Origin: Jaapia argillacea MUCL 33604
Lineage: Eukaryota; Basidiomycota; Agaricomycetes; Jaapiales; Jaapiaceae
Assembly (NCBI GenBank): GCA_000697665.1
Contig: KL197769.1
Coordinates: forward strand, 51,799 to 78,270
Length of the DNA stretch: 26,472 bases
Direction: 5' to 3'
Positions 3,710-26,472 of the stretch are shown in pieces. The notes beneath the pieces are model-generated. The model was not told the origin of the DNA. It saw only the letters and a program-made list of their open reading frames with translations, and did no database searches. The position numbers and the translations under genes are program-made. Numbering within the stretch: position 1 is the stretch's first letter; the number at the start of each line of letters is the position of its first letter.

Positions 3710-5388
3710 ATGTCTTTCGTTTCCGAGCACCCCGTCGCCTATATGGCTCCCGGTCTGGCAAGCATGATTGTTCAATCATTTCAAACAGGCTGGCTTGTGG
3801 AGCTCTTCTGTGATTTCTTGTCTCGCTCGCATCGCGAGACCCTTACCATTAGAGTGATGGTCGTCTTCGTGACTCTGACCGCAATGTGAGCCTTTCTAAT
3901 CCTTCGATATTCGTGTCCTGACGTCTGTTGGGGAAGATTTCAAACAATCACAGCCTTCCTTTCAGCTTGGCGGATAGGCGTCGTTCATTTCGGTGATTGG
4001 GCAAGTGACGGTGTTGATTGTGCAAGGCTTCTTATTAACATTGAGAACTAGACGGAGATACTCCAGGAAAAGTGGCCAGATAAAATCCAGACTCTGATGG
4101 TGAGTAACCTACAACACGTTAACGGCTGCCGAAACTAACTGTCGTAGACAGCATCCTTGGCAGCTCCCTTTCAAGCATTCTTAATTCGAAGATGCTGGAT
4201 GGTGGGTATCATTTACCGATGCTGTTATTGTATTCGTTGAACGGGATGTCCTACAGGTCACGAACAGGAGCTGGTTTGTGCTCGTGAGTGTTCCCTCGAT
4301 TTATCGACGTAGAAAGCCCTTATCTCGCTCAGGTGCCGTTGACGGCGCTGCTGTTCGTTACTACATCTCTGAAGATATATCAAACAATTGCAATGTTTGG
4401 CCCTTACCGACCGTCTCAAGACGGGCTACCAACCACAGTACTACCGGTGACTTATAATCCTACCATCGTCTCGTTGCTATTCTCATGAGTCACCTAGAGC
4501 ACCAAATCTCGTGGGTCCCCACCTCGTCAACTAACAGAGTGTTCTTTGAACTTATGGGCTCGTCAGTCATCCTCGGTCTAATTTTATCCGCGGGTAAGAG
4601 CAACTGTCATTATCACCTCCCGACTCAACTGACGACCCAACAGTTCTTGACATATCGTTGACAACGATCAGTAAGGTTACTGCGACCCCTCCCCTTTACT
4701 CGTCTTGACCATGGTTCATTGCTTTAGTATTTACCGTTATTTGGCGTGCTCGCTCATGTATATACTCTCGACGGTTTCGGCGGGTACGTGAATCCCTAAC
4801 TTCAACCGACTGACGAGTTCTCACGTGTGCATCAGACAATTCGTCGGGTTGTGCTCGTCTCTTGGGAATCGGCTGCCGTTCCTTCGGCATGCGCGGTCAC
4901 TTCCGCCCTGTTATACATCATATGGGTCACTATCTCTCGTCACGTACAAGGTGGTGGGAACTCACGATATCCCCTGTGTGTAGGGTGAAAAATCAGCCTG
5001 GTATCTTTTCTTTCAAGCCATTCTGGGGAAGCTATATGCGATGTCATTCTTGATCACATTGTTAGTAATGCTCGTCTTTTTGCAGCAGCCTACTAATAGT
5101 TTTTGAGTAGGAATGCCCGACTTGGCCTATGCAATTACCCTTCCGAATCGAGCGAAGTTGGCGCGCCAGCTCCCCCAATGTCCATGGTACGGGGTAATCT
5201 TCAAGTGATTGTAAGTGACATGGTGTATCGTTCGCAAATGGGATGGTGTGGCTGACTTCCTCATTCAGGTTGCTGAATCGGGAGAGGGTGATATACTCCC
5301 AATAACTCGAACGCACCACACGATTCCTCCAGCATCAGAACCTCCACCTGAAAAGACTGGGTACCACCCCCCAACCATTGCCGAGTGA
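3710..5388 (+). CDS. DUF6534-type seven-helix membrane protein
   Basis: Fungal integral membrane protein of unknown function. Likely exons: 3710-3885, 3937-4012, 4052-4099, 4148-4201, 4257-4283, 4333 to about 4408, 4538-4593, 4644-4670, 4728-4783, 4836-4943, 4984-5060, 5111-5210, 5269-5388. Segments read in order: QSFQTGWLVELFCDFLSRS (helix 1), IFQTITAFLSAWR and HFGDW (helix 2 and loop), APFQAFLIRRCWM, VPLTALLFVTTSLKIYQTI, MGSSVILGLILSAVLDISL, a basic loop IYSRRFRRTIRR, SAACAV-like helix 6 near 4880-4920, and FFQAILGKLYAMSFLITLNA (helix 7). This order, and the RxxR loop followed by the KLY...TLNAR helix, is the DUF6534 pattern. The tail after NAR is Pro/Ser-rich and ends in IAE. The exon 6 donor is unresolved (GTCTCA near 4409 keeps frame). 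Two introns of only 39-40 nt must be accepted; without them there are stops, so mild decay cannot be excluded. Confidence 0.75.
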
Positions 5389-7395
5389 GCGGGGATTCAA
5401 CGACAATACCTCTTCACGTTTATGACCCCCATATCTCAATTGGGTTGGCCATCCCACATTCAGACTCCTAATGATGGGCTCTCGCTGAGGTTTGAAGCTC
5501 CCCGTCCTATGATGATGTGGCCAGTGGATTCCTCGTAGGAATGGTGGTCGGCTGGTAGCACTGCAAGACAAGATACTGTATGTAAGAGAAGGCAATCGTT
5601 GTAATAGCATTTGAACACCTCGTCTGGAAACGCGATGATCTTCCAGCTTTTCCACTCCTCCTACGCTCATAGTCGACTCCTCGTTCTCTGGCGTTCATCC
5701 GACTAGAGGCAGATCAGGACCTCCTCCACGACCCAACCATGTTCCATTGCCAGACTGATCACCTGCACACTCTGATGATCGAGGCATTAAGTGATCCAGT
5801 GGCCTTTTCAGCCGATTGAGGTTGTCATCCGAAGTGCTTCCACTCTCTGGACACTCATGTCTCAGCCTTGGCCTCATTCCCCGAAAGTCTCGTTGTCGGT
5901 TCCGTCGGAACCGGACGCTTGGCAAACACTGAAGATGAGACGAATGCAGTGTCCCACCCACTGCCTAGAATCCATTCCTTTCTACAAGCAGGTTGTCGAC
6001 GCTCCAGAGCATCAAGACCTCACAGCTCATTGATGGCTGGACCAATCAAACCTGAGCATAGTAGTCTTCGTATTCTTCTAACCAGGAAGTCGCTCGTGAA
6101 GGAACTGAAGTGGCATTCCGAACCCACCAGATCAAGACCTCACGCAGACATACGTCACGACGATCTTCCCATAGAAGGAGAGGGCCAGCTGGTGAAATGG
6201 GGTCTGGGGCACAGTCGAAGTGGGATATTTCGACTCTGATCCCTGGATATCGTCAGGTTCTCGTGAGATGGCCGGTCGCGTTGATGTGAAGCCCCAACCA
6301 TGCCGTTCAATTGTAAGAATCGGGTTGTGGAGCAGTAGTATTTCAAGACCAGAGCGTAAATTCCTGTAATAAACATCAGTCGGTGTAAGAAGACGTGATC
6401 CTGTCGTGAAGGAATAAGTGATATCAACTTCACTCTGACTTCGCTGTATGCCTCAGGCCGGAGGGTGCGCGAAAGCTTGAGCCACGAGGATCGAGGATTG
6501 ATTCGACAGGAGGATGTTCAACTAGAAAGGTGAAGAAGAGAGAGATACGGCATTACGAGTGCGGGGTATAGAAGCGAAGGAAGCACAACCGTGCGTGGCT
6601 TAAAATATCCTCCCAGGACTCGTGGAGGAGTAGGTGCGATAACATATACAGCCGTCTGGTCAGCCCGGGTACTACAACAAATCTCTGTCAAGGACGGTTT
6701 GGAGGCTAGGGAAAGATGTACGGCTTGTATGAGTAAAGAGGGGCTTATCGTGCGTGCTGACACGCGGAGAAAGCCAAGAAGTCAATCCGTGAGGCACGAG
6801 TAAGCGCTCAGAAGGTTCAACACAAGGCAGATTGTCCAGAAATATACCCAAGTGGCTCAAGGACGGGCAAAGGATTCGTCGAATGGGCAGGCTTCGGGGT
6901 ACCGGGTTGGTCAATGTTGCTTGCACGCGGCGGCTCCGGCAAATATCCATTGACCAATGCCGATGACACCGAGGCTTGGTCTCCACAGGCACCGAACTTG
7001 CCAAGTGCAGTACAAGATAGACATTCGAGTAAACAGGAAGCAAAAAGAGGGGGAAATTGCGCAGGTGAAAGTGGTTGTTGACTTTGGATTTCTCTGGCAA
7101 AAGATTCAGAAAGGCAGAGGAGGATGAGGACAGGAAAAGCGAAACATATGGTGGTTTGATATCAAGGACGCCAAGCCTGAATATGTCGGGGGTTCGTGCC
7201 TTGTTGGGAACGTTCCAAATAAAGAAGTGCCAAACCATCCCTCTTCTCGAATCTGCGACGCCAGCAAATAAATCTATTCCTTCCCACTCCTTCCGCTCAT
7301 TCATTCCCGCCTTCTCGTCCGACCCTCATTGCCGTTTGTACTTCCTCTACACTTCTCCGCTGGCACGACGACTCTGACGCAAGTTTTTGACCAAG
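5389..7395. other. Gene-poor 2 kb stretch
   Basis: Open frames occur on both strands (for example plus 5868-6239, minus 5335-5670, minus 6672-7304), but none has a family motif, consistent splice structure or paralogue in the window. The last 200 bases must contain the promoter of the methyltransferase-like gene, including the dyad at 7207-7216. Confidence 0.5.
7207..7216. promoter_or_regulatory. Perfect dyad GGAACGTTCC upstream of the methyltransferase-like gene
   Basis: A 10-bp perfect palindrome made of two inverted GAA units (GAAcgTTC), about 180 bases before the ATG at 7396. A second inverted pair, TTCtcGAA, lies at about 7244-7251. Inverted nGAAn units are the building blocks of heat-shock elements, but two incomplete dyads are weak evidence. 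Confidence 0.25.
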
Positions 7396-8848
7396 ATGGC
7401 TTCACTAGTCCTCTCGCGACACCCCCGTTACGCTCTCCTAATCTTCTTGGTCCTCATGGGCACACTTTACATGCTTGCTTCCGACAAGATACCAGAATAT
7501 GAAGGATACGGTGTGAACGAATCCAAAAAACCGCTAGGTTACGATCCGGATTTGGGTGTAAGGGTACAGAGAGCCGAGAGGGTTTATCAGAAGATGTTGA
7601 AGAATAGGGAGGCACTTGTCGACAAGTTTGGGCCAAATCCGAACGACGTTGTAAAGTGAGTCTTGCTTTATCTCTGGTGGATGTTGGTTGAGCGGTGGAT
7701 GTGTGGGGAATGGATGTTAACAATCTCCTTGTGCTCAGTTTCCCTCCGGATCGTGAACCATGGCCAGCGTACACTGTTTGTGCGTAACCATGTGTGTTTC
7801 CGGATACCATCACTAATCACTGAAATGCGTCAATTGGATGCTACAGGGGACTTCTTCCCCCCTTCATTTAACTGCCCTCATGAAGTCGAGCGGATAGGTG
7901 CAATGGGCGACGGTGGGAAGTGGATTTGTGGGTTATCACGATTGACAGATAAACCTGATTGTATCATTTACTCTATTGGTACGTTTTCCATCCTTATCCT
8001 ATAACCTTCGCCCTCTGACCATCATGTTCCCCTTCCCGTTCCCCACTACCCAGGCGTAAATTACGAATCATCCTTCGAAGCAGAAGTCCTCGAACGAACC
8101 AAGCACTGTCAAATATGGGGTTACGACTTCACAACAGAATCCTTCGGTCCTCAAATTCCTCGACTTCTCCGTTCGAGAGCGCACTTCAAACCTTGGGGGT
8201 TAGGAACTAAGGATGCGCATGGTAGTGGGGATGTCCAGAAGATGTACACATTGGAGAGCTTGATGAAGATGAATGGTGCGCTTCCGTCCCCTGGCTTGTC
8301 CTGCTTTCCGATTTTAGCAGTTTCTCTGGTCTCGATGATGATCGTTGCTTGATTGCTGACAATTGCGAGGCGTTTCAGGCCACACACATATTGACATCCT
8401 GAAGGTCGATATGGAGTCTGGGGAATTTGACACCTTAACCGCTATCGTCAAACCCTACCTGACTTCTGAGCTACCTCTACCTTTTGGTCAACTCCAGTTG
8501 GAAATTCACTTATGGGGGAAGAGTTTCGCGGAGTTCAAGCAGTGGTGGGAGATGTTGGAAGAGGCCGGGTTAAGACCTTTCTTTACTGAGGTGCGTTGGC
8601 CATCATAGTCGTTCTTCAGGGAACACTTGTTTATTCGGTTTCGTTTTCGTGTTCCTAGCCCAATATGGTGTATCAGAACTATAATAGGGACGGCTCACCG
8701 GAGTTGTCAGAGGTCGGTCACCTCTCTCTACCTTCCCCCACACCCTCTAACTTTCTCGTCCCCGATACAGTACACATACCTCAACATCAAGGGAAACAAC
8801 ATCTTTATCTCAGACGGATCCTCCTCCGATTACGTCCGACATAGTTAA
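7396..8848 (+). CDS. Membrane-anchored Methyltransf_22-type protein
   Basis: Seven exons: 7396-7655, 7739-7779, 7847-7978, 8054-8275, 8379-8590, 8659-8712, 8771-8848, giving 332 aa with all phases consistent. The start ATG has good context (accaagATGGC). Residues about 11-27 (RYALLIFLVLMGTLYML) form a signal anchor, so it is probably a type II protein of the secretory pathway. The conserved domain begins at WDFFPPSFNCPHEVERIG and continues with GDGGKWICGL, a YSIGVNYESSFE block resembling the SAM-binding region, HIDILKVDMESGEFDTL, GQLQLEIH, and WWEMLEEAGLRPFFTEPN. This block order is that of the Methyltransf_22 / METTL24-like family, widespread in basidiomycetes. The acidic residues in KVDMESGE and the VNYESS turn are where the family is expected to bind SAM. 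The substrate is unknown. No neighbour appears functionally linked. Confidence 0.9.
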
Positions 8849-9361: not shown

Positions 9362-10208
9362 GGTGTAATTGTGGCTCTCTGTGGCAATCCATTCATGGAG
9401 GGCCAAATGTCGTCCAAGTCGGTACTGGAACTGCGCTACGCTTCTCCTTCGAAACCAATTCTCGGCGTTCAGCCAGAAATTTTACTCAAGACTGGACAAT
9501 TGAAAGCTTTCCTTGATCTCTGGATCCCTTTACAGGATAGCGGCCAGCCTCGACCGACCTTCATTCATTGGACTGTATCCCTGCGTACTGTATGGATATG
9601 TAACTGGCGACAGATGTTCCTGAAACTCAGAGGAATGTTGTTCGTGGCTACTTGGTGTTCTCTGCGGATGTGTTTTACACGCAAGAGGTCTTGGCCTCCC
9701 AACGGTTCATGGCTCCCTGATTTTTGAAAGAATCATCAACTGGATCCGAGGTAAGTCTGCTTGTGCTGTCCCTCTTTCCAAACGTTGGCGCCATCCACAC
9801 TTCCTTGATCACAGGCTTCCCTTGTACCCCGAGAATCAACCCTGTTATGCCCTCTCTCCCTTGTTCCCTTCCACTTTCTAAGTTTCTTGACATTTTGGCT
9901 CGCCATTGTGCCTACGGCACCAGGTTCACGTGCACGCTTCGCGTAAGCCTACTCGTATAAGCGCTTGTGAGTCTTGTCCGTATTCGGTCTTGGATTGCTT
10001 CATCGTGGAGTCGCTTCACCGAGGCGTACGGGCGAAGCTCACGAGTACCATCCAAAGCTTATGTGTTCACACACATAGCAGAGCTGCGTTTGTTCACCCT
10101 CCCCGGCCCAGTTTCGGATCGATGTCTTGGTGAAAATCACATTGATAATCGGGGGGGCTAGTACTCAAGCCGTTGTTACTATACCCCGTTAGCTATTTGT
10201 GGGTCATC
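9362..10208. other. Unassigned region between tRNA and the P450 pair
   Basis: An open frame on the plus strand (first in-frame ATG 9371, next 9410) runs about 118 codons to 9727, but shows no motif I recognise and is crowded by other open frames. It may be a decayed gene or chance. Nothing else is supported before the TATA box at 10209. Confidence 0.4.
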
Positions 10209-10216
10209 TATAAAAG
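10209..10216 (+). promoter_or_regulatory. TATA box of the first complete P450
   Basis: TATAAAAG, 57-64 bases upstream of the ATG at 10273, which is the usual distance allowing a short 5' leader. Confidence 0.65.
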
Positions 10217-10272
10217 CAGGACTCCTGGCTTCCTGTCTTACCATCTTTGAACCGGACTCAACGATCGTCGAG

Positions 10273-12808
10273 ATGAAGATATTAGGCTTCCTCCCTCCTG
10301 GAATCCCATACGTCTTTCGAACCCTCTTTTCCGTTGTCCTAGCACCTCTTTCTGTCTTGTTCGCAGTCGACGTCCTCCGCACCCGATTCTCTGTGCAAAT
10401 TCCTATCTGGGTGTCTGCTTTATTATGCATTGTCAGCATTCCTCTCTTATTCGCCGCTCGCGTGGTTTGGAAGAGCCAGCAAGAGAAGCAGGAGGCGAAA
10501 AGGATGGGCGCGAGGTTCGCTCCAGTTATGAATGGGAATTGGCCAGGGAATGTGGATGTGTTGTTGGAGTTCGTGCGGAGTTCCAGGAATGATTATCCCG
10601 GTGAGGTTCAGTTGGGCTGGATGGCCCATCTGGGTACGAACGTCATGGACTTGCGGGTCTTATGGGAGGATATCCTCTTTACCACCGAACCTGAACATAT
10701 TAAGGTTCGTGGCTCCTCCCCCACCTGAGCGAACTCTCCATGAATCATTGTTTGTAGGCGATACTGGCTACGGATTTCCAGAATTTTATCAAGGGTGAGT
10801 TGGGTTTCACCGGATTCTTTCTACTGTCTTGATTCCCTCGGATGGTTCTGCAGGCGACAAGTTCAAATACTCTATGCGGTCCGTCCTTGGCACTGGGGTC
10901 TTCAATGCAGATGGTATGTTGTGTGTCTGAGACATTTTTTTCACGACCTAATCTCTCACACCATAGGTGATATGTGGAAGTGCGTCTTTCCGTCATCACC
11001 GGTGGGCAGCCAATCTGGTCATTGTCTAATATCACCCACCCCAGGTTCCACCGTTCCATGACACGTCCCTTCTTCTCTCGTGACCGCATCTCTCACTTTG
11101 ACATCTTCGATCGACACGCAGAGGATGCCATCGCGCGTATGAAAGAACGATTCCGCTCTGGCTACGCCATCAACTTCCAAGACCTTGCCTCTCGTTTCAC
11201 CCTCGACTCAGCTACTGAGTTCCTTTTTGGCAACGACGTTCGTTCGCTTGCATCGCCACTTCCGTATCCCTACTCTGCTCCTGCGGCTGAGCGCAGCAAC
11301 GTGGGCCTATCACACGCCGAACAGTTCGCTCGAGCCTTTGCGGAAAGCCAGGAGATCATTGCTGATCGCTCTCGGGTTGGCGCTACGTGGCCCCTTCAAG
11401 AGATGTTCAAGGACAAAACGAAGGATCCCATGAAGGTTGTGAATGGATACATCGAACCAATTTTGAGAGAGGCTCTGGAGAAGAAGCCTTCGACTGAAGA
11501 GAGGGGGGCGAATGGAGAGAAGATGGAAGTGGAGGAAGGAGAGACGTTGTTGGACAATTTGGTCAAATTTACTTCGGGTGAGCCTCCTTGCGTGGGGTTG
11601 TATCGGAGAAGAGCTCTGGTTGCTAATCTTATTATATAGACCCCATTGTTCTCAAGGACGAGATTTTGAATATCTTGATTGCTGGGAGGGATACCGTGAG
11701 TCTCCCTGCTGAAATTTCATCTTGTGTAATTTGAACTGGTTTTTAGACGGCGTCCACTTTGACTTTTGCGATCTACCTGCTGGCCATGCACCCACCCGTC
11801 CTTGCCAAACTTCGCTCGGAGATTATGGAACTCATTGGCCCTAGCAGGAGGCCTACCTACGACGATATTCGAGATATGAAATTTTTGAGAGCGGTCATCA
11901 ACGGTTAGTCCCCTCTCAATTTCCTCATGTTAAACTGCTTTCTGTGCTCCCTCGATCATCCACTGTTCCCGCGTTCTCGTCTGGATAAGCTGACATATGG
12001 TATGGTTTGCAGAAACACTGCGTCTGTTCCCCGTAGTGTGAGTTCATCGTTGACTAACTCTGTATCCAAGTATCTCACCTCAGTATTTTCCAGACCTTTC
12101 AATATTCGGTGCGTCAGCTTTCACGAGAGTGTCTCTAACCATAACATAAATCGACAATTTCTTCAGCGAATCTGTCAACTCAACGACGTTACCTTCCTCC
12201 AATCCTACTGAAAAGCCGATCTATGTCCCGGCTAGAACGAGGTGAGACCTCGTTGTATTCTCCCCTTCCTGCCGTTACTGATAAAGGTGTTGATAGCACA
12301 TCCTATTCGGTCTTCCTGATGCACCGTAGGACCGATTTGTGGGGACCTGACGGTTCGTGATTCATGTCATCCCCCTGCGGGAAGCATCCGACACTAATTC
12401 ATTGATTCAGCTGCGGAATTTGATCCCGACAGGTTCATCGACGAGAGATTGAAGAAATACCTCACTCCTCATCCGTTCATCTTCGTTCCGTTCAACGCTG
12501 GCCCTCGGATCTGCCTTGGTCAGCAGGTCCGTCCCCGTTATCTTTCTCTCCTTCTCCCGTAAACCTCCAACTGAAATGTCTTGCAGTTCGCGTACAACGA
12601 AATGTCGTTCATGTTGATCCGACTTTTCCAATCTTTCTCCTCCGTCACTCTTTCGCCCTCGTCCCACCCTCCTGGCACTCTGCCCCCTCCTGAGTGGTCT
12701 TCTGCGAAGGGAAGGAAGGGAATCGAAAAGTTCTGGCCAAAGAGCCATTTGACCATGTACTCGCTCGGGGGGTTGTGGGTGAATATGGAAGAGGCTAAAG
12801 ATGCGTGA
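10273..12808 (+). CDS. CYP63-like cytochrome P450 monooxygenase (13 exons)
   Basis: Heme-thiolate monooxygenase, expected in the ER membrane with NADPH-P450 reductase as partner. Exons: 10273-10704, 10758-10794, 10854-10913, 10967-10979, 11045-11577, 11640-11695, 11747-11903, 12013-12037, 12094-12108, 12167-12241, 12297-12352, 12411-12526, 12587-12808; 598 aa, all phases closed. The N-terminal hydrophobic anchor (residues about 8-60) includes the [10 protein letters not shown] start. [19 protein letters not shown] marks the C-helix region. The I-helix AGRDTT is at 373-378, ETLR (ExxR) at 430-433, FDPDRF at 490-495, and the heme loop [10 protein letters not shown] with Cys521. The sequence matches the CYP63 family of wood-decay fungi, known to oxidise alkanes, fatty acids and xenobiotics; this enzyme's own substrate is not deducible. 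Unlike its two paralogues it lacks the first intron. Exons of 13 and 15 nt are conserved with the neighbour. Confidence 0.95.
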
Positions 12809-13294
12809 GGTGTTTGTATGATCTTAATCATACGAGTGAGCGTAGTCGGATTTCGCGTCTAGTGTAAATGTAATTCGCCTTTGTATGTACTAATGAGATC
12901 TTCCTCCCCGTCTGTCTATTGGGGAAGCGTTGGGTTGGCGGAGTTGGTGACTTCTTGTCAATCATAAAGTGATCGGCTTCACCGAGCCTCGGGGCGGCGT
13001 AGCGGCGCGGATTCGTGTGGCTGCCTACACAACTGTTGCGTGGATTTTCCAGTGTTCCACCTTCCTCCCTGTCGTCTCGGAGCAATGCCTTTTGATATTG
13101 ATAGTGCCATTGAGTTGGATCTCATACCATTTCTCTCTGGTGTCGGATATCAACGGCCTGCAGCGTCGTCGCCGTCGAGCCCGGTTCCACAAATCCGGAT
13201 CTGTTGGCGCTAACGCCGAATCAAATGAAGAGGATAACGTATTTCTGGACAGACTGAACGTCTGGCTGTTGACTTGAGAGTTCATTCAACGAAC
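12809..13294. other. Spacer between tandem P450 genes
   Basis: About 490 bases holding the 3' flank of the first gene and the promoter of the second. No clear TATA box precedes 13295. No gene is supported here. Confidence 0.55.
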
Positions 13295-15894
13295 ATGAAG
13301 CATTGGCTGAGCTCCCTCCCTCCCGGTGTCCTTTTTCTGGTCGATAACGTCTTCTCTGTATCCTTCCTCGCCCCAGCTTCTGTCCTCGCTGCTACCAACA
13401 TCTTCTACACACGTTTCTCCCTTCATATTCCGAACTGGCTGTCGGCGCTGTCATGCCTCGTCAGCCTTCCCCTTGTGTTTGCAGGTCGCATAATATGGAA
13501 GAGTTTTGCTGATGAGAGGGAAGCAGCTAGGATGGGCGCAAGGATGGCTCCTGTTATGAATGGAAAGCTTCCAGGAAATCTTGACATTCTAATGAAGTTC
13601 TTGAACGGCTCGAACAATGACTATCCCGGTGAGTGGTAGGCTTTGAGCTGAAAATATTAGGATATTGGTTCACCCATGGTTGCGGCGTTGCGACGACAGG
13701 CGAGGCTCTGCTGGAATGGATGGAGCACTTGAACTCGAACACTTTCAATCTCCGGTTGTTGTGGGAAGACTTCATCGTGACCACTGAACCTGAATATATC
13801 AAGGTCGGTGATTCACTCATCCTCAGGCATTTCAGCAAAGTGAATACTATGTCGTTAGACTATCTTGTCGACAGATTTTCACAACTATGTCAAAGGTTCG
13901 TCCGTTAATGTGAAGAGTGTCCCCTCTTGCCCTGTATTAAACTCTCGCAGGCGAGAGGTTCCAGTATGCTATGGAGTCTGTCCTTGGCTCTGGTGTTTTC
14001 AATGCAGATGGTGCGTTTCCCTGCTACTCCCCCAAAACTTCTCTTACATTTGTCACCGACACACAGGTGACATGTGGAAGTAGGCACTCCTTTTCCCCAT
14101 CTACCTTCGTAGCTTATGGCCCTGACGGAACTCTCAGATTTCATCGTTCAATGACACGCCCTTTCTTCACCCACGATCGTATCAGCCATTTCGACATTTT
14201 CGATCGACACGCCGAAGACGCCATTGCAAGAATGAAAGATCGCTTTGAGTCCGGATACGCCGTCGACATCCAGGACCTCATATCCCGCTTCACCCTCGAT
14301 TCAACGACTGAATTCCTTTTTGGAAAGGACGTCCGTTCTTTGGCTTCTCCATTACCATTCCCATACACCACCGGCACGAAGCTTCCCTCTGGGGACATAC
14401 ATCTATCTCAAGCAGAGCAGTTTTCGAGGGCGTTTGCCCAGTCGCAGCAGATAATTGCTGATCGATCTAGGACGGGTGAGGTATGGCCTTTACTGGAGAT
14501 ATTTGGGGATCAGACAAAGAAACCGATGGAGGTCGTCAACGGCTATATCGAACCAATCTTGAGAGAGGCATTGGAGAAGAGGAAGACAAGTGAGAAAGTT
14601 ATTGAGGGCGACAAGTACGAGGTTGGGGAAGGAGAGACGCTGTTGGATCATCTCGTCAAGTATACTTCGGGTGAGTGGATTTGTACAGGTAACCTTTTCA
14701 CAAAGTCTACAAAGTCACTGATTGTTCGCTTTTGTTCTCAAGACCCTGTTGTTCTCAAGGACGAGATTCTGAATATCATGATCGCTGGGAAGGACACGGT
14801 GTGTTTCGTTCTGTATCCCCTGTGCCTCTATCTGCCATTGTATGTATTGATAAAGCTCTTCCACATAGACTGCTGTGACTATGACTTGCGCTATCTATCT
14901 ATTAGCTATGCATCCCTCGGTACTCAGCAAACTTCGTTCTGAGATTTTGGAACGCGTTGGACCCCACAGGAGACCTACGTATGACGATATCAAGGAGATG
15001 AAATACCTGAGGGCTGTTCTCAATGGTTCGTCTCGTCTTTTCCTACACTTTCGTCTCACCAGGGATTGGCTAATACCTCGACTAAAGAGACACTCCGATT
15101 ATTTCCTCCTGTGTGAGCGTTCCTTGCTGGCGTATTTTGAACGATGGTTTCTCACTTACCATAATTCCAGCCCTTTCAACGTGCGGTTAGTTTGATGTCT
15201 TCAATCGGTGCTTGAGGTGAATCTTATGATCACTGAACGCAACTTCACCACCAGCGATTCCGTGAATGCAACAACGTGGCCTTCCTGCGATCCTACCCAA
15301 AAGCCAATTTATATCCCTGCTGGCACCACGTCAGTAATCTTTGCCTTTCGCTCCCAGGAGCTTGGGTTGATCTCTCTGCCCGTTCTCCAGTATTCCGTAT
15401 TCTGTATTCTTGATGCATCGCAGGACCGACTTATGGGGACCTGACGGTACGTCACATTCAACAGGCGCCCGTCGCTGAGTTCATAACATCTCCTGTTCAG
15501 CTGACGAATTCGATCCGGAACGCTTTATCGATACGAGGCTGAAAAAATACCTCGTTCCCAATCCATTCATCTTTCTCCCATTCAACGCTGGTCCCCGAAT
15601 CTGCCTCGGTCAACAGGTCTGTCACCTTCCAATTACGGGTTACCCATGTATCCATGTCTAAATCGATCATTACAGTTTGCGTACAACGAAATGTCATTCA
15701 TGTTGATCCGACTTTTCCAAACCTTTTCATCCGTCACGCTTTCACCTTCGTCTCATGTTCCTGGTACGCTGCCACCTCCGGAATGGTCTTCGGCACGGGG
15801 GAGGAAAGGGATAGAGAAATTTTGGCCGAAGAGTCATTTGACGATGTACTCGCTTGGGGGCTTGTGGGTGAACATGGAGGAGAAAGAGGTTTGA
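13295..15894 (+). CDS. CYP63-like cytochrome P450 monooxygenase (14 exons)
   Basis: Tandem paralogue of the gene at 10273. Exons: 13295-13628, 13700-13803, 13859-13895, 13951-14010, 14067-14079, 14138-14670, 14743-14798, 14869-15025, 15088-15112, 15171-15185, 15255-15329, 15391-15446, 15501-15616, 15676-15894; 599 aa. Exon lengths from the third onward equal those of the upstream gene except for the last, which supports the model. The start [11 protein letters not shown] is chosen by alignment. Motifs: N-terminal anchor, [20 protein letters not shown]-helix AGKDTT at 375-380 (Lys where the sister has Arg), ETLR at 432-435, FDPERF, and [10 protein letters not shown] with Cys523. An ER-membrane monooxygenase of the CYP63 type is inferred. 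It keeps the first intron (13629-13699) that the upstream gene lost. It looks intact. Confidence 0.95.
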
Positions 15895-16338
15895 GATTGA
15901 AGACCATCCAAGAGTTGCCGCTGGTGCGGGGTATGTGGTTTTAATTAGCATGTTCTTAAAACCGCACTTAACCTACGGGTCGCAACAACATTCCATGGCA
16001 GATGTACGCTGATCCAAGGCTACAGTATATGCATGTCGCCGTCCACGACCCCGTGCTCCGCGGACGATGACGCTTTCCACTTAACGTGACTATGAAGCCC
16101 CAATCTTTTAGTTATTGTTGGCAGTGGTATTATGGAGTATGTAATGATACCCCAGCATACAGTATACCTGAAGGGGAAGGGGATGGAAATTCGAGTTGCG
16201 GAGACTTGTACAGAGATCAAGTGTGAAAAGCCGATCAAGAAGGTTTACGGAACAGGCTTCCAAGAATAAGAATCGACCAAGTCCATACCGTTTGCACCTT
16301 GGGGCGGATAATCGGTGCAACGATGGATGCGCAAGGGA
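15895..16338. other. Convergent intergenic region and left edge of duplicated unit
   Basis: The 3' flanks of the plus-strand P450 and the minus-strand membrane-protein gene meet here. From about 16020 the sequence is clearly related to 18239 onward, so the duplicated unit begins here. No gene is supported. Confidence 0.55.
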
Positions 16339-17649
16339 TTAAGTATCGTAAATTTCAGGTAGGCCCGGGTGCCTGACAGGCCCTGGCGGGGGTGACTGTG
16401 GGTAGGTCGTCTGAACAGGCGAACCGGGATACGAGGGGTTGGATGAAGTCGGTCGTGTTGGGTCCTGTAAACGTTGACCCAGTGGTCATTGCTACTCACT
16501 TGAGTAGCAAAATGAAGATACGTACGTAGAATGCAGAGTTCTCGAACGTAACCGGGGGTGTGAGGGGTTGTTGCATCGTCGATGGGGTAGGAGGGCAACC
16601 TGGATTGTTCATGATGGGCACTGTGTAGAAGACCTTCAATAAAGTGGTAACGCATTGGAACAGCGACATTGGATTTGCCTTTTTCCTGCCTCCGCTTATA
16701 CCATATCCACAACACCAACCCCATTACAGCGACAACGACAACGAGGACTCCCGCAGCAACGCCACCCACTATTGCACCCATATGGCTCTGCTTGGCCCCA
16801 GATATCCTTGAAGGGATAGCAGTGGTTTCCGGGGTACCTAAACACGAAGATAGGTGTCTCTGCCATCGAAGGAGGATGCAAAACATACCACCGACAAGCA
16901 GCGCCGTCGAGGCATTAAAAGTACCACCTGTAGCCTGAAGGAATGGGATCTCGTATTGACGGGACGCGGATAAATGACAAAACGACACATACGTCTGGGT
17001 CAGTATACGCCCAGTGTGGAATGCTTGTGCCAATAGGGAGGGTACCCGGAAACCTGAACGGATGAAGATAAATTCGAGCGTAGCTGGGAACAATGCGAGA
17101 CAGGGCTTACCCTATGAGATCCATTTTAGTTGAACAGTTTCCTATCCACTCGGAGTACCTATCTTTCGTCTTGGTAAGATTAGTTCCAAAAGTGTGAGTA
17201 GACGCACATTCCGATCTTTCCGCCTTGACACCACGCACAAGCGCTAACCATTGTATAGAAAACCGTGCTGCACGTGCATGGGTTCACAGTATTATAGGCT
17301 AGCTCGGGCCCCTGATAGACGAATCCGAATGGGAGAGGCCGAAGAGGTGTGACTGTCGATGATGGATGAGCACTGAGGAGGGAAAGCCGGTGAAACGGAA
17401 TAAGTACATACGATCGCCCAGACAGATGCCTTTCAAACTTGTAGCGATCGCGCAGTCATCTTGGCCTAGTAAGTTTTGGGACTGGAAACGGTAAGGTGAG
17501 AAGGATTTCAAGACTGGATACGGGTGCAAACGAACGATGGGCGAAGCAACGTTGCAACGGGCGACATTATCTGCCTGACCGATAGCTCTGAGGGGCAAGA
17601 CAGACGCTACGAGAAGCAATGATCTCGCAAAGAGGAAAACTGAATCCAT
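16339..17649 (-). CDS. Secretory single-span membrane protein with Cys-containing ectodomain (copy A)
   Basis: Nine exons on the minus strand: 17649-17536, 17481-17412, 17352-17208, 17158-17111, 17053-16993, 16934-16889, 16837-16679, 16620-16526, 16464-16339; 287 aa. Start MDSVFLFARSLLLVASVLPL is a signal peptide ending near IGQA. The ectodomain carries GQDDCAIATSLKGICLGD, then PCTCSTVFYTMVSACAWCQG, a WIGNC element and GTSIPHWAYTD. This is the cysteine and Trp/aromatic pattern of a family common in mushroom genomes, usually annotated only as transmembrane protein. A very short stalk (TPETTAIPS) leads to the membrane helix at about 182-208 (GAIVGGVAAGVLVVVVAVMG), followed by basic residues YKRR and a Pro-rich tail with PLTPPVTFENSAFY. 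Intron 7 (16678-16621) has a GC donor; frame demands it. A cell-surface role is inferred; the function is unknown. Confidence 0.85.
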
Positions 17650-17709
17650 AAGAGTGTGAGCGGAGAGTTGGTGAGAAACTGGCGCCAATACACATGAACT
17701 CCCGTCGGC

Positions 17710-17716
17710 ATATATA
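17710..17716 (-). promoter_or_regulatory. TATA box of membrane-protein copy A
   Basis: TATATAT on the minus strand, 61-67 bases before the start codon at 17649. The same element sits at exactly the same distance in copy B. Confidence 0.6.
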
Positions 17717-17835
17717 CAAAGCGGAGACAGTGTTCTCCCTGGCCCTCCCTAGTCCACAAAAGCTCATTCATTAGAGCCTTGTCAACACAGCCTTGACAGC
17801 CTAGCCGAGGGGCGACTTTGCTGGGCGAGGACTAC

Positions 17836-17849
17836 CCATATCGATATGG
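17836..17849. promoter_or_regulatory. Perfect palindrome CCATATCGATATGG (copy A)
   Basis: A 14-bp perfect dyad 187 bases upstream of the copy A start codon. It lies inside a block (gcgaggactacccatatcgatatggta) that is unchanged in copy B although the flanks have diverged, which suggests a protein-binding site. Confidence 0.45.
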
Positions 17850-18557
17850 TATGAAATAAGTCCAACCAGTAGGTGGAGGCCCCGGGACTCCTTTGTGGAT
17901 CCAGGATCAATGAATACACGATTCCAAAGGGTGGGCGAAGGTTCAGAGGAGATAAAGTAGCCATAAAAGTGGTGGAGCAGCAGCGATGTCAGTTTGGACA
18001 GGTGATACAGATGCCTGCCTGCCTCACCTAAGAGGATCCAGAGCGGTCCGGTCGGAAGCCAAGCAACGCAAGAACTTGAAGCCAACCGACGAAGAGGAAT
18101 GGAGACCACCAGATTCGAAAGGGAGTCGCGTCTCCCCTGAGCGTCCTTGATGTAGAGTGGTTTTTGGTGCCGAGGGTGTTTTGGGCGAATATAGATGAGG
18201 AACCATGGACACGCTCATTCAGGGAGAGCTGGCCCTCTGGTATAGTAAGTGGATGTCGCTTTCAATGACCCGGTGCTCCGCAGACGATGGCACTGTCCAC
18301 TGAGCGTGACTATGGAGCCCAACTTTTAATTATTGTTAGAGAGTGGTATTATCAAGCTTGTTTGTTACGATATATCCCAAAATACAGTTTATCTGGAAGG
18401 GAATGGAACCAAAAAAAATCTTGCGGAGACACGGACATATAGAGACGAAGTCTTAAAAAGGACGACGGAACAGGCTTCCAAGAATTCAAATCAACGAAGT
18501 CCATACCGTTCGCATATGGTGGCGGATAATTCATACAAGGGTGTGATGCTTAAGGGA

Positions 18558-19954
18558 TTACGCATTGTACACTTCAGGTAGGCCCGGGTGCCTGACAGGC
18601 CCCGGCGGGGGTGACTGTGAGTAGGTCGTTTGAACAGGCGAGCCAGGATACGAGGGATAGGATGCGATCGGGCGATTTGGGTCCTGTCAAATTTGACCGA
18701 GCGGTCATGGCCTGCGACTCACTTGAGTAGTAAAAGGAAGATACGTACATAGAATGCGGAGTTCTCGAACGTAGCCGGGGGTGTGAGGGGTTGTTGTATT
18801 GTCGAGGGGGTAGCAGGGTAACCTGGGTAGTTCGTAGTGGGCACTTCACAGAAGACCTTCAACAAAATGGTAAAACATCGGAACAGCGAAGTAGGACTTG
18901 CCTGGATCCCGATTCCGCCTGTGCAATATGTACCACACCAACCCGATCACAGCGATGGCGATAACGACGACTCCCGCAACAACGCCACCCACTATCGCAC
19001 CCGTATGGCTCTTCTTGGCTCCAACTACGCTTGAGGGGGTAGAGGAACTCGAAGATGAGGAAGAGGTAGCGGATGAGGTCGTTGAAGTCCTCGATGAAGT
19101 CGTTGAAGTGGGTGAAGGGGTGGCAGTGGTTTCTGGGATATCTAAAGACGAAGTTAGGCATCTCAGCTATTAAAGGAGAAAAACACGGCATACCGCCAAC
19201 GAGCACAGCCGTCGAGGCGTTAAAAGTACCGCCCGTTCCCTGAAGGATTGGGTTGTCGTATCACGGGACGCAGATTCAGAGCAAAAGAATACGTACACGT
19301 GGGTCGGTATAAGCCCAGTGTGGAATGCTTGTCCCAGGAAGAAGTTTTCCCGGAAATCTGAACGGATGGTCAATGTTGGTGCCAAATTGTGAAAAGAAGG
19401 GGAGAGGACTTGCCCTATACTTTGCAACGGAGTCGAACAGTTTCCTATCCACTCGTTGTACCTATCCATCCTTATGTATCAGCCGAATTACTTCCACAAA
19501 AATCAATGGACTCACATCTCCCAATCTCCGCCTTGACACCATGCACAAGCGCTAAACATTGTATAATAAACCGAGCTGCATGTGCAATTGTTTACGGTAT
19601 TATAGGCCGGCTCGGGTTCACGATAGACATATCCGAATGGGAGAGGGGTAAGAGGTGTGACTGTTGACGATATATGAGCGCTGAGGGAAAGCCGATGAAA
19701 TGAAGTAAGTACATACAATCGCCCAGACAGATACCTCGCAAAGCCGTAGCGATCGCACAATCATCTTGCCCTAGTAAATTTTGGGACTGGGAACCATAAG
19801 GTTAGCAGGATGCCAAGACTGGGTGTGAGTGGGAACGAACGATGGTTGAAGTAACGTTGCAACGGGCGACATTATCTGCCTGACCGACAGCTCTGAGGGA
19901 CAAGACAGACGCTATGAGAAGGAACGACCTCGCGAAGCGGAAAACTGAATCCAT
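18558..19954 (-). CDS. Secretory single-span membrane protein with Ser/Thr-rich stalk (copy B)
   Basis: Paralogue of copy A. Exons: 19954-19841, 19786-19717, 19660-19516, 19461-19414, 19357-19297, 19239-19194, 19141-18902, 18843-18749, 18683-18558; 314 aa. All exon lengths equal copy A except exon 7, which is 81 nt longer. Signal peptide MDSVFRFARSFLLIASVLSL; ectodomain GQDDCAIATALRGICLGD, NCTCSSVYYTMFSACAWCQG, WIGNC, GTSIPHWAYTD. Residues about 166-198 are a Ser/Thr stalk including eight consecutive serines, probably O-mannosylated. The helix is at about 209-235 (GAIVGGVVAGVVVIAIAVIG), then HRRNR and a tail with PLTPPATFENSAFY. Introns 4 (19413-19358) and 7 (18901-18844) both use GC donors (GCAAGT). 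The first intron (19840-19787) must be spliced to avoid a stop and has a perfect CTGCTAAC branch site. The function is unknown; a surface sensor or wall-associated role is only a guess. Confidence 0.85.
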
Positions 19955-20014
19955 GAGAGTGTGATCGGAGAGTTAGTGAGAAACTGACGCCAACACACAT
20001 GAACTCCCTTCGAC

Positions 20015-20021
20015 ATATATA
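20015..20021 (-). promoter_or_regulatory. TATA box of membrane-protein copy B
   Basis: TATATAT on the minus strand, 61-67 bases upstream of the start at 19954, matching copy A in sequence and distance. Confidence 0.6.
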
Positions 20022-20139
20022 CTAAGCGGAGATAGTTTTGTCTCTGGCCCTCCCTAGCCACAAACTCGTTTGTGTCAGAGCCTTGTCAATGAAGGTTTGG
20101 CGGTCTAGCTGAGGGACGACTTCGCTGGGCGAGGACTAC

Positions 20140-20153
20140 CCATATCGATATGG
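20140..20153. promoter_or_regulatory. Perfect palindrome CCATATCGATATGG (copy B)
   Basis: Same 14-bp dyad as in copy A, 186 bases upstream of the copy B start codon. Confidence 0.45.
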
Positions 20154-21223
20154 TACGAAATGCAGCGGACCTAAGTCCAGCCAACCCGTGTGGACACTGC
20201 GGGATTTGAGGATTCAGGCAGGTCCAGGACCAATGAAAACACACAATTCCAATGGGTGGGTGAAGGTTCAGAGGAGATAAACTGGCCATGTGACGAGTGT
20301 GGAGCGCCGGCGACGTGAGTTCGGACAGGTGATACAGATGTGTGCCTGAAATGCCCGGAGAGGATCCGGAACAAGGTCGGAAGCCAAGACAAGCAAGAAG
20401 TCGACCGACGATGAGGAATCGACAACACCAGGTTCGAAAGGGAGTCGCGCCTCCCCTAAGTATCCTTGATGGAGTGGTTTACGTTGCTGAAGGTGTCGAC
20501 AAGATACAAATCCGACCCGTTGAGAGAGAAGGCTCAGATTCCGAGAGAGGCGCCCAATGAGCCTAGAGACAAGTCGGGCCAACGGAAAGGATATGAAAGA
20601 CAGGCTCGGCAAAGTCGAGGGGGTTAGGAGGGGGTTAGATAACTAAAACGCCTTGGCTTAAGCCAGCTATTTGAAGATGTGTGCCAAGGTGTGTGTGTGA
20701 TCATGAGGACCCCAACCAAGAACCTAGCCGAGAGCGGGGCCAGAGCAAACACTTGGCACTTGTCCCTAACCGCGAAGGTTCAGGTCGCCCTGGATAGCGC
20801 TCAGGTGGCCGTGTAGCAGCTGTATAACAGTCTGCGAGGTAAGGAAGACATAGTATCGCAAAGCCACTGGTGGTTGTGCTGGAATTCGCGAATTCCTTGC
20901 TGGCGAGCCACGGGGTTTTCCGCGTTGTCTCAAGTGACCGTGACTGTGCCCATTCAAAAGAAAGGGATGAATGTGAGGATTGGAAAAAACTGAAGTTCTA
21001 AGCTCTGTTCTATCAAACAGAATGACACCAGTGGACCCAGGATCAAGGAGTTCAGAGACGAGAAGGCAAACGAAGGGAAGGGGGGGGAATCACTGAAAGC
21101 GGTTTTGGTTTGCGCGCCACATCCATGTGGCCTCCACGTGTGTTGGCCAGTCTCGGTTCTCTCACCCATTCGAGTCGTCAATAATAACTCGTTCGTCTCC
21201 ACAACTTTCTATCCAGACCAGCC

Positions 21224-22480: not shown

Positions 22481-23068
22481 TGCGATGATGGTTTTCGTTC
22501 TGGGGGAAAGAAAGGGAAGTGTGGTGCTTGTTGGATGATTTGTTCGCTGGGTGCTCGCTTAGAGGGACAGTCGTGGCGATGACGAGCCTGAGTGGACTTG
22601 TATTCTATCTCTTTTGGGGTTAATTCCGGTCGGAGGGTTGGCTTCACTTCATTCCATTCACCACCTTCTCTTCTCATCATCTAGTTCACCATACCTTCTT
22701 TTCTCTCCCTCCCCCTCTTCACCGTCCCATTCCTTTTTGTTTGCATGAGCATGAATTTCTGTAACTCACTCACACTTCAATCACGTAGTAATAGTAGCAC
22801 ATCATTCCATCCATTCACTGTCGTCTTGTCCTTACAAGTTTGTATGTTTTATGTATGCCTATGTTCAAGTTGCCGTTATCATGATCCAAGTCAAGGTTCA
22901 TGGCGAAGCCTCCAACTACGCATACACTCATCTCCTGACTGCCCCCAGCGTACGAATGGCGGGAAGTCCGTGGATAGATTCCAGAATCTCGCGTTCAATC
23001 CTGGCTCGTGGCATTTCCATTTTGGGATCGTACCCGTTAAACCTCGAGAGGATGGCTTGCTCGACATC
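22481..23068. other. 3' flank and unassigned sequence before the inverted repeat
   Basis: No gene is supported. It includes the 3' flank of the HAPSTR1-like gene and a stretch at about 22850-23060 whose open frames lack motifs. Confidence 0.5.
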
Positions 23069-23506
23069 CCACAGAACGGCCGGTATATTTTCTGGATAGG
23101 TTTTGAGTGGGATATTGTATAAACCAACATTTTTGAGGGGTAATAAATGGATTTTTTCGAAATTAATGAGTGTACATGGGTGTTACTGAGTACTCTGGTG
23201 ATACTGAGAGGCGAGAAAGAGGGTGGTGGGGAGGTGGAGGGATGATAAAAATGGAGGGGAGGAGGGAATGAAGATGTAGGGTGAATAGGGGAGGGGAGGG
23301 GGGACAGGATGTGAATTGAAACAAGGGGTTGAGGGGGTGGGGGGGTGAGACACTGAGACAGAGCTGGCAGGGACAGGGAGGGCTGGAAGGGGAGAGGGAG
23401 AAGGAGGAGAGGGAGGAAGAGGAGAGGGAGGAGAGGAAAGGAGGAGAAAGGAGGAAAGGGGTGTGAGAAGGATGGGAGGAGGGAGGGAGGGAAATGGATA
23501 AAGTGA

Positions 23507-24590
23507 ACATACTTGTGTGGCCTTCTTAAACCACTCAAACTATCAAACCATCCATAGAGCATCCATCATCTTTGGAGTTCTCCAAATCATCTCTTCGTTG
23601 AGGCTGGCATGCAGATGCAATACTGAAAAGAGGGTACCACTAGCAAGGATAGAGATCATGGTGATACAAGTGTTGACAGTGGTAGAGTCTGGGGCCTGCA
23701 GGATCTCGATGCCGTGTGGGGAAGTATGGGAAGGTGCGGTGGTGAATCAGGTGGCAAACCTTCATCGTGGCTACCCTTACTGTGGTCTGGGGGCAGAATT
23801 AGACTGTATGCGAAAGCATGTTTTGAGAAATGCCTTCAGTACTTGTCACCATAGTCGCGGCAGTCAGGTTATAATGGTGGGGTGAACAGGGTTGACCACT
23901 TGAAGTGACCTGGCGGACCGAAACGGACTGTCGCGGACGTGTCCGGTCCCTACCAGAACCCGTCCCGACCCCACATTCCTTACCGACTCTGCACCTTCCT
24001 AATCCGTCTCAAGTGGCTGAAACACTGTTTTACTCGATATCTCTATTCAGTCGCTCCTTATGCCTTATGGACCATGCAGGGCTCCTTTATCTATGCCCAC
24101 AACCCTATGCTATGTGTATAAAGTACATACTGTGTTGTACACTTGAGTTCCTTAGTCTACCGTGAACAGAGAGAGCTTACACTGGTTCTTTCATTCGTGT
24201 GAAGACTACCTATTCTGGCTAGTGTCACATGCCCAGGTTATTCCCTTGCCATGACACAGACTGAGGGTGTTGAACGCACTCTGTTTGTTGTGCCTATCTG
24301 CAACTTGTCCCTTATTATCACTCTCGTTTCTCTTGCACTGCTGCCTGACTTCACTAGCTTGATTCATGTACGCTCGCAGATTAACAAGGTGAAGATCTCA
24401 CCCCAAATGCGGCTGCAATGCTCTCCAGCTCTGCTCCTCACCAACTCCGCTGCCCAAAATCTTGTCAACCCACACTTGGAGGACTTGGCTAGTATGATCA
24501 ACAGAAACATGGTCAGATGGATCTGAGAGGCATGTATGAAAGAATTATTAGTTAGTTGTGAGTTAATTTATTCCCACTGTTCATTTGGCC
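23507..24590. other. Interior of the inverted repeat, no gene recognised
   Basis: Open frames at 23517-23885 and 24251-24526 have no family motif. The most structured part is the CGGAC cluster at 23914-23949. Confidence 0.45.
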
Positions 24591-25200
24591 TTCCTTCTCC
24601 CAAATTGCTGTCATTCTCTTCTCCTTCATCTCAATCCTCAGATCCTGTCCCTTGTTTCCTCATCCCCCCCCTTTCCCCCAGCCCCCCCTTCCTCATTCTT
24701 TATCTCCACTGTCTTTTCTTTCCCCTCAGTCTGATCCTTTCCCTCCCTCCTTGTATTATGCTCATTGTCTTATTGTCTCTACCCATACTCCTTTCCTTCT
24801 TCTCTTCCTCCCTCTCTACATCCCTCTACATATCTTATTTCTCTCCTTCTTATCCACTATTTCACCCACCTTCCTGTTCTTCCTCTATCTCCTCTCCCGT
24901 CTTCCCACACTCCTTCCCTCCTTTCTCCCCTCTTCCTTTCCCTTCTCCATTCACTCTTCCTTCACCTTCCTCACCTCCCCTTCTACTCCCTCCCCTCCTC
25001 CTCCTCCTCCTTCCTCTCCCCTTCCAGCCCTCCCTGTCCCTACCAGCTATCTCTCAGTGTCTCCCCCCACCCCCTCAACACCTTGTTTAACTCACAACCT
25101 GTCCCCTCTCCCCTCCCCTATTCACACTACATCTTCATTCCCTCCTTCCCTCCATTTTTATCATCCCTCCACTTCCCCACCACCCTCTTTCTCGCCTCTC
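24590..25200. repeat. Long polypyrimidine tract
   Basis: About 600 bases that are almost all C and T on the given strand. Its right part is the inner portion of the right arm of the inverted repeat. Long open frames here (Pro/Ser/Leu/Phe only) are products of the composition. Confidence 0.8.
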
Positions 25201-25343
25201 AGTGTCACCAGAGTACTCAGTAGCACCCATATACACTCATAAATTTCGAAAAAATCTGTTTATTACCCCTCAAAAATGTTGTTTTATACAATATCCCACT
25301 CAAAACCTATCCAGGAAATATACCAGCCATTCTGTGGCACTTT

Positions 25344-26472
25344 GGGAGTAAGGGTATTCTAACCTTCCCTGGGTATCTGTGAGAATGTAATGCCGGAATA
25401 AAATATTTAGGTGCCCTCAGAATTTGTTGTTCCTACTGAACATAAATTCAAAGTCTTTTGTGTGTTCCGAATGAGATGAGGAACTTGAAGTTTAGAGTGG
25501 CTTAGTCAGTTGCTTTATCAGGAAAACGGTGGGGGTTTGACCTAGCCTTATAATGCATTGTCTAAGCTAGAATGTCCATAATAACCAGTATTCTGATAGT
25601 TGAGTTGATCATCGTTGACCTGGCTAAATAACACAGGTGTGAGATTTTATGGTGGGTCAAGGCTGTCAGGTAGACAGCCATGACAATGTCTGATAATGAT
25701 GCACGCAGAGATGCCGAAGAAATGAAATACCTATTTCCAAATATCTGAGATCAATCATAACTCAGATGCTGGGGTCCTTGACCTTTACAACCTCGATTTC
25801 GAGATCAAAACAAAACAAATATTTATTCAACAAGTAACGATGACAACACATGTGGCAAAAATGAACAAGTATCGATACATCAGAGACAAAGGATCTCAGG
25901 CACCCCATAAAAACTCCAAATGTTGAAATGAGGGCTTGTTGTGAACACATTCAGACTTGTATATTTTCTGTTGTTTTCATTCTTTTATCAGGACTTCATT
26001 CGCTTTTGTATCATTTCCTTTGTCCATGATATGTAGCCTCGTTTCATCTTCTCTTATCTTGGACATTATCTTATCTTGGACATTGTACTATTATTAGTAT
26101 CCAATAACTCGCCTAGTACAGCCTCGTATAGCCTCATCATTGTTCTCTATTTTCATTGTTACTATGTTACTACTTCGACTCCGCCTGTGCTCTTACAGAG
26201 CTAAGGATCGTGCCTCGGCGGATCTAACTAGACAGGTCACTGTAACTAAATCTCCGACATACGTCGACTTCTGGGGCTTGACCCAGTGTGATTCTGCGAT
26301 GGTGATCTCGTCAACAGCTCCCCATGAGATGTAAGAAAGAGAGTAGAAGAGAAATGAGTGCAAGGTAATCAAGGTCGCAACATCGTCGAGAAACCCAAAA
26401 CCAAAGAAGTGACACCTGAAAGAAGGAAAGAGAAAATCCCGACAACGAATGTGATCCTGGCTCCCAAAGCCA
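25344..26472. other. AT-richer non-coding sequence with short tandem repeats
   Basis: No gene is supported. Two adjacent 17-bp copies of cttatcttggacattat/gt lie at 26053-26086, and two 10-bp copies of GTA(C/T)AGCCTC at 26116-26135. Base composition is more AT-rich than the gene-bearing part. Confidence 0.5.

What the first reader, a model, noticed from the sequence alone, without database searches (positions are those of the whole stretch)
23069..25343. Foldback-like inverted repeat with arms of about 440-490 bp and strand-asymmetric composition
The two arms are reverse complements over hundreds of bases, best at the outer ends. The inner arms are nearly pure purine on one side and pure pyrimidine on the other. 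Transcription across it would give a long RNA hairpin, and the mirror-type tracts could form triplex DNA. No transposase was recognised inside, so it may be a non-autonomous element that is not catalogued.
Basis: seen in the sequence. Interest (0 to 1): 0.7.

Follow-up and report, generated by a model that had tools for sequence, protein, structure and literature searches.

The report
Fungal foldback transposon with purine-rich arms
The inverted repeat is a worn copy of a small jumping-DNA family, probably in a fungus: no enzyme gene was recognised in it, it duplicated a few bases of host DNA on insertion, and its long mirrored ends carry an unusual one-sided purine stretch.

Summary
The inverted repeat is real: 23069-23493 pairs with 24914-25337 at 87.7% over 432 columns. 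It is the long terminal inverted repeat (TIR) of a multicopy DNA-transposon family. The true left end is window 22951. The outer 117 bp of the right arm lie outside the window, at C61:85555-85671, displaced by about 8.4 kb of inserted DNA. CCCAGCG flanks both ends. A pattern made from known ends finds 25 ends, 0 in the reversed control. All 8 contigs with two ends have them facing inward, 1.2-14.9 kb apart. Flanks match best at 7 bp in 7 of 8 pairs (exact in 4, 6/7 in 2, 4/7 in 1) and at 8 bp in one. Eleven of 13 arm profiles turn purine-rich 250-300 bp from the tip; both C10 arms do not, and the unprofiled C58 right arm shows no tract. The interior holds a solo LTR. Best reading: a non-autonomous foldback-type cut-and-paste element moved by an unidentified transposase. 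Its anatomy is closest to Galileo/Foldback. Superfamily, RNA-hairpin and triplex roles remain unshown.

The parts
22944..22950 (.). Left copy of the 7-bp target-site duplication, CCCAGCG; the right copy follows the right end at C61:85671, outside the window
   Evidence: Flank comparison, 7 of 7 at offset 7; other offsets from 4 to 10 bp match poorly
22951..23493 (+). Left terminal inverted repeat, about 543 bp; begins TACGAATGGCGGGAAGTCCGTGGAT
   Evidence: The six other places found with the left flank begin here; inner part pairs with 24914-25337
23231..23493 (+). Purine-rich inner part of the left arm (purine 0.88; 77-base pure purine run at 23385-23461; imperfect tandem units of 9-24 bp)
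23494..23928 (.). Left part of the unpaired interior, no Pfam match in the one frame scanned and no match elsewhere
23929..24256 (.). Solo LTR (TGT...ACA, about 328 bp), 94-97% identical to four LTR copies aligned; imperfect 5-bp flanks CGGAC / CAGAC
24257..24913 (.). Right part of the interior; pyrimidine-rich from about 24590 (purine 0.16)
24914..25337 (-). Inner part of the right terminal inverted repeat, pyrimidine-rich on the + strand from 24914 to 25180
25338..26472 (.). Start of about 8.4 kb of other DNA that splits the right arm (25338-26168 matches dispersed repeats); the arm's outer 117 bp resume at C61:85555-85671

Best explanation
The repeat is one old copy of a non-autonomous, foldback-type DNA-transposon family. 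Before later insertions it was about 2.2 kb: two arms of about 543 bp round a short interior without a recognised gene. Shown: shared ends, inward-facing end pairs, short target duplications that are mostly 7 bp, long arms with a purine tract at a similar distance in most arms read, and later insertion of a solo LTR and of about 8.4 kb of other DNA. Inferred: a transposase made elsewhere binds the conserved ~70-bp ends, cuts the element out, and inserts it with a 7-bp staggered cut. Also inferred, and weaker: the internally repetitive purine tracts help transposase binding or end pairing, as proposed for the repetitive arms of Galileo and Foldback elements.
For: Terminus pattern, up to 2 mismatches: 25 hits (12 forward, 13 reverse), 0 and 0 for the reversed pattern; the pattern was made from ends already seen. 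All 8 contigs with two hits have them inward-facing. At 7 bp the flanks of C61 (ours), C10, C6 and C13 match 7/7, C20 and C27 6/7, C58 4/7; 7 bp is the best offset of 4-10 in each of these 7. C3 matches 8/8 at 8 bp. 17 arm ends from 10 places: 24 invariant columns, all within the first 72 bases of the window copy. Purine tract from 250-300 bp inward in 11 of 13 arm profiles. C27's coding stretch is a separate nested element: C13 shows the uninterrupted sequence, and C17 carries the block with the same two edges.
Against: No transposase was found: 10 of 19 listed C20 frames had no Pfam match at E 0.1, 10 of 25 C27 frames none at E 1, and only part of the C10 frames were scanned. 9 of 25 ends have no partner. 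C58 flanks match only 4/7, and C3 fits 8 bp (1/7 at 7 bp). Both C10 arms share only about 80 bp and lack the purine tract, and the C58 right arm shows no tract. The window copy's interior outside the LTR matches nothing else in the genome search nor in 16 fetched loci. Several copies run into N stretches, so inner arms there could not be read. No duplication was recognised at the 8.4-kb insertion.
Confidence: 0.9

Rival explanations
1. A one-off inverted duplication or hairpin-type rearrangement with no element behind it.
For: Single ends without a partner (9 of 25), and an interior that, outside the LTR, matches no other place. Of the single ends, C7 and C8 run straight into N, so a partner there could be hidden.
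Against: Shared termini at 25 places, 8 inward-facing pairs and 7- or 8-bp flank matches.
Confidence: 0.03
2. The family is a large, cargo-carrying or autonomous transposon like the 14.9-kb C10 copy, whose frames include a weak integrase-core (rva_4) match; the short foldback copies are its deletion derivatives.
For: C10 has 7/7 flanks and holds an rva_4-like fragment (E 0.014, 15.5 bits against a cut-off of 26), an alpha-kinase match and P-type (E1-E2) ATPase matches.
Against: The exon next to the rva_4-like fragment has one match in the genome, itself. C10 lacks the purine arms. C27 is large because of a nested insertion, and C3 may be (two short matches).
Confidence: 0.12
3. The inverted repeat is kept as a source of double-stranded RNA or small RNA, or as a triplex-forming regulatory site.
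For: Long complementary arms and the 77-base pure purine run.
Against: No expression or small-RNA data were on hand; the mobile-element anatomy explains the structure without it, and the right arm is interrupted.
Confidence: 0.05

Closest known systems
Galileo (P superfamily, Drosophila)
   Same: Long TIRs (0.5-1.2 kb) with conservation between species restricted to about 40 bp at the tips, 7-bp flanking sequences, internal tandem repeats in some arms, copies made only of two TIRs (passages of PMC3573991, and PMC3688188).
   Different: Galileo has a known THAP/P-type transposase; none is known here. The tip sequences were not compared. No purine tract was mentioned in the passages seen.
Foldback (FB) and Mutator/Foldback elements such as Tm1 of root-knot nematodes
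   Same: Composite TIRs with a distinct tip and an internally repetitive part; MITE-like copies; a 12-bp purine-rich motif near the inner end (passages of PMC3169594).
   Different: Tm1 duplications are 8-10, mostly 9 bp; repeat motifs differ; a putative transposase is known there, none here.
IS3EU of rust fungi
   Same: TIRs end TAYGG..CCRTA (section 3.1 of PMC12730594); most ends here begin TAYGAA, alike in the first four bases, though others begin TAGG.
   Different: 6-bp duplications there, mostly 7 here; no IS3EU transposase was seen in the frames scanned.
hAT7 of rusts and Kyakuja of Laccaria
   Same: 7-bp duplications (PMC12730594).
   Different: Kyakuja has CA..TG ends and no TIRs; no hAT or KDZ match in the frames scanned.

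Membership tests
TIR-order DNA transposon (class II) | Inverted terminal repeats at fixed ends in dispersed copies | tested here: met
   25 ends, 8 inward pairs, control 0 and 0; 17-arm alignment
TIR-order DNA transposon (class II) | Target-site duplication of constant length | tested here: met
   7 bp best in 7 of 8 pairs, one of them only 4/7; 8 bp in the eighth
TIR-order DNA transposon (class II) | Transposase in some copy | tested here: inconclusive
   A sub-threshold rva_4 match in C10; none in 10 of 19 C20 frames; C27 genes lie in a nested element; C3, C6 and the single-end copies were not read through
Foldback-type element (structural class) | Long TIRs making up much of a short element, with repetitive inner arms | tested here: met
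   Arms about 543 bp in about 2.2 kb here, tandem units; C13 is similar; C58 has arms of about 205 bp in 1,154 bp
Galileo (P superfamily) | THAP-domain P transposase | not tested
   No search with a P-element profile was made
Galileo (P superfamily) | 7-bp target-site duplication with long TIRs | tested here: met
Tm1 (Mutator/Foldback) | 8-10 bp, mostly 9-bp, target-site duplication | tested here: not met
   7 bp best in 7 of 8 pairs; C3 alone reaches 8 bp. MULEs at large are not excluded by this
IS3EU | 6-bp target-site duplication and TAYGG ends | tested here: not met
   7 bp in most pairs; ends TANGAA
Kyakuja | CA..TG ends without TIRs | tested here: not met
   TIRs present, ends TA..TA

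The most novel reading that the evidence does not exclude
The polypurine tract, on the inward-reading strand and about 250-300 bp from the tip in 11 of 13 arms profiled, is a functional transposition module. It stays in place while the arm sequence diverges between subfamilies, and a foldback family with unrelated tips (C12:1049583-1054848) carries one too. If so, this is a transposon class whose ends work through a non-B purine structure or a purine-tract-binding transposase subunit.
Probability: 0.1. Interest if true: 0.65.

Novelty: new member of a known kind. Interest (0 to 1): 0.4.

Why it matters
It turns an odd inverted repeat into a defined transposon family with exact ends and a countable target duplication, so it can be annotated and dated in this and related genomes. 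The purine tracts border N stretches in several copies, which would fit places that are hard to assemble. The similar position of the tract across diverged subfamilies is a testable clue to how foldback arms work, which PMC3688188 calls uncertain for Galileo (passages).

Tried and rejected
One-off inverted duplication: rejected by the shared ends and flank duplications. Reported limits as the element's ends: rejected, since the six other places found with the left flank begin at 22950/22951. C27 reading frames as the family's transposase: rejected. They lie in a block (L069 about 1608-8308, ends CACCACCA..TGGTGGTG, flanked by TA); C17 carries it with the same two edges, C76 matched only its right part, and C13 shows the uninterrupted sequence. 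Two of my notes were wrong and are corrected here: an 8-bp duplication for that insertion (note; it is TA) and an 8-bp one for C13 (note; it is 7 bp). A C12 foldback (ends CACCTCAACC, apparent 8-bp flanks CTTGAAAA, my reading) has purine arms but unrelated tips, so it is not counted in the family. Pfam scans of part of the frames of C10, C20, C27 and the window gave no transposase above its cut-off. Six paper searches showed no description of this family in the rows listed (listings only, except passages and section 3.1 of PMC12730594 and passages of PMC3573991, PMC3169594 and PMC3688188); most subscription papers are not held.

Full report
Setting. The window is C61:51799-78270 of an unnamed 43.7-Mb genome in 95 contigs, with no relatives held. 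P450-like frames and LTR elements fit a fungus, probably a basidiomycete; that placement is my inference and comes from no call.

The observation. The inverted repeat exists as described. BLASTN gives 23069-23493 against 25337-24914 at 87.7% over 432 columns, and the ungapped outer 275 bp are 90% complementary. Shuffles never come near: 581 against at most 53, and 458 against at most 43 for the outer 275 bp (200 Markov shuffles each). The inner left arm is 88% purine and the inner right arm 14%.

True ends. A genome search with the left flank (22640-23100) gave the window itself and six other places, which begin at query 311 or 312, i.e. window 22950/22951. One of them, C61:85555-85672 on the minus strand, is 95% identical to 22950-23067 and lies 8.4 kb to the right of the window's right arm: it is the missing outer part of that arm. 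Between them, the first 831 bp (25338-26168) match dispersed repeats: one stretch on C28, one on C7, C22 and C33, and one with 35 of the 40 scored matches. The rest was not classified and includes a 1,344-base N stretch that starts where the window ends. The outer ends are TACGAATGGCGG.. and ..CTATTCGTA, flanked on both sides by CCCAGCG. Taking out the later insertions leaves about 2.2 kb (my arithmetic).

Copies. A first terminus pattern found 11 ends, control 0 and 0; a looser one found 25, control 0 and 0. All 8 contigs with two ends have them facing inward: C6 4.0 kb, C10 14.9 kb, C13 3.3 kb, C20 13.0 kb, C27 9.1 kb, C58 1.15 kb, C61 (ours) 10.9 kb, C3 10.7 kb. Nine ends are single: C2, C7, C8, C9, C12, C25, C29, C46, C83. 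Over offsets of 4-10 bp, 7 bp is best in 7 of the 8 pairs: 7/7 in C61, C10, C6 and C13, 6/7 in C20 and C27, 4/7 in C58. C3 gives 8/8 at 8 bp and 1/7 at 7 bp.

Anatomy. I aligned 17 arm ends from 10 places (of 25 found); the 24 invariant columns fall in the first 72 bases. Composition profiles of 13 arms show ordinary DNA for about 250-300 bp, then at least 150 bp of 75-100% purine in 11; the two C10 arms do not. The C58 right arm was not profiled, but the tract scan shows only a left tract in that copy. Arms cut short by N (C20 left, C6 right) or fetched only in part (C3) were not profiled. The tract scan covered 28 sequences, some overlapping, 162,675 non-N bases. Tracts of at least 120 bp with 88% or more purine or pyrimidine occur in the window and 14 loci. 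Most lie in arms of these elements or of the C12 family. Three do not fit so simply: a pyrimidine tract in C10's interior (L035 4751-5090), one about 1.7 kb inside C20's left end with the opposite strand to a left arm (L063 471-680), and one on C9 (L066) with no element assigned. The loci were picked for resemblance, so this is no genome-wide rate.

Contents. The window copy's interior holds a 328-bp solo LTR whose relatives include pairs 8.8-11.7 kb apart on C40, C8 and C15; the rest of the interior matched only itself in the genome search, and the two interior frames scanned had no Pfam match. C27's frames belong to a nested 6.7-kb element with ends CACCACCA..TGGTGGTG: C17 carries the block with the same edges, C76 matched its right part, and C13 shows the uninterrupted sequence with one TA. 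C27's size therefore says nothing about an autonomous member. C3 may be similar, from two short matches. C10 carries P-type ATPase and alpha-kinase matches and a sub-threshold integrase-core match; the exon next to the latter has one match in the genome, itself. No transposase can be assigned.

Age. The outer 274 aligned bases of the window arms differ at 17 places (12 transitions, 5 transversions). Other copies, over stretches of different length, differ at 7 of 245 (C27), 7 of 300 (C13), 17 of 200 (C58), 9 of 270 (C6) and 1 of 117 (C20). The window copy is the second most diverged of these six, in line with its nested insertions.

Comparison. By anatomy this works like Foldback-type elements, and of those Galileo is closest: 7-bp flanking duplications, tips conserved over tens of bases, long and partly repetitive arms, two-TIR copies (passages). 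Membership of the P superfamily needs a P transposase, which was not sought. Tm1 (mostly 9 bp), IS3EU (6 bp) and Kyakuja (no TIRs) fail a tested feature. It is therefore reported as a new family of a known kind, superfamily unassigned.

Noticed in passing
window 23929-24256: Solo LTR of an LTR element with paired copies on C40, C8 and C15, inserted inside the foldback interior.
   Followed up: partly
L069 1608-8308 (C27); C17:103503-110224; part at C76:76583-80867: A 6.7-kb DNA element with CACCACCA..TGGTGGTG ends and a TA duplication; the frames of it that were scanned had no Pfam match; C13 shows the site without it.
   Followed up: partly
C12:1049583-1054848 (L064, L065): A second foldback family with unrelated tips but purine-rich inner arms, 88.8% arm identity over 956 columns.
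   Followed up: partly
C10:1122148-1137047 (L034, L035): A 14.9-kb stretch bounded by the family's ends and an exact 7-bp duplication, with P-type ATPase and alpha-kinase matches and an rva_4-like fragment.
   Followed up: partly
window 301-1764 and 10179-15894: Related cytochrome P450-like genes in both orientations; two of the frames scanned match PF00067, one below its cut-off.
   Followed up: no
window 16021-20496: A tandem duplication with a shift of about 2.2-2.3 kb, about 78% identical.
   Followed up: no
L033 7544-7566 (C61, where the right arm resumes): A short perfect palindrome, TTGCTCGACAT-C-ATGTCGAGCAA, at the junction of the 8.4-kb insertion; no duplication at the insertion point was recognised.
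   Followed up: no
L063 471-680 (C20) and L066 91-330 (C9): Pyrimidine tracts not explained by the arms described; the C20 one has the opposite strand to a left arm.
   Followed up: no
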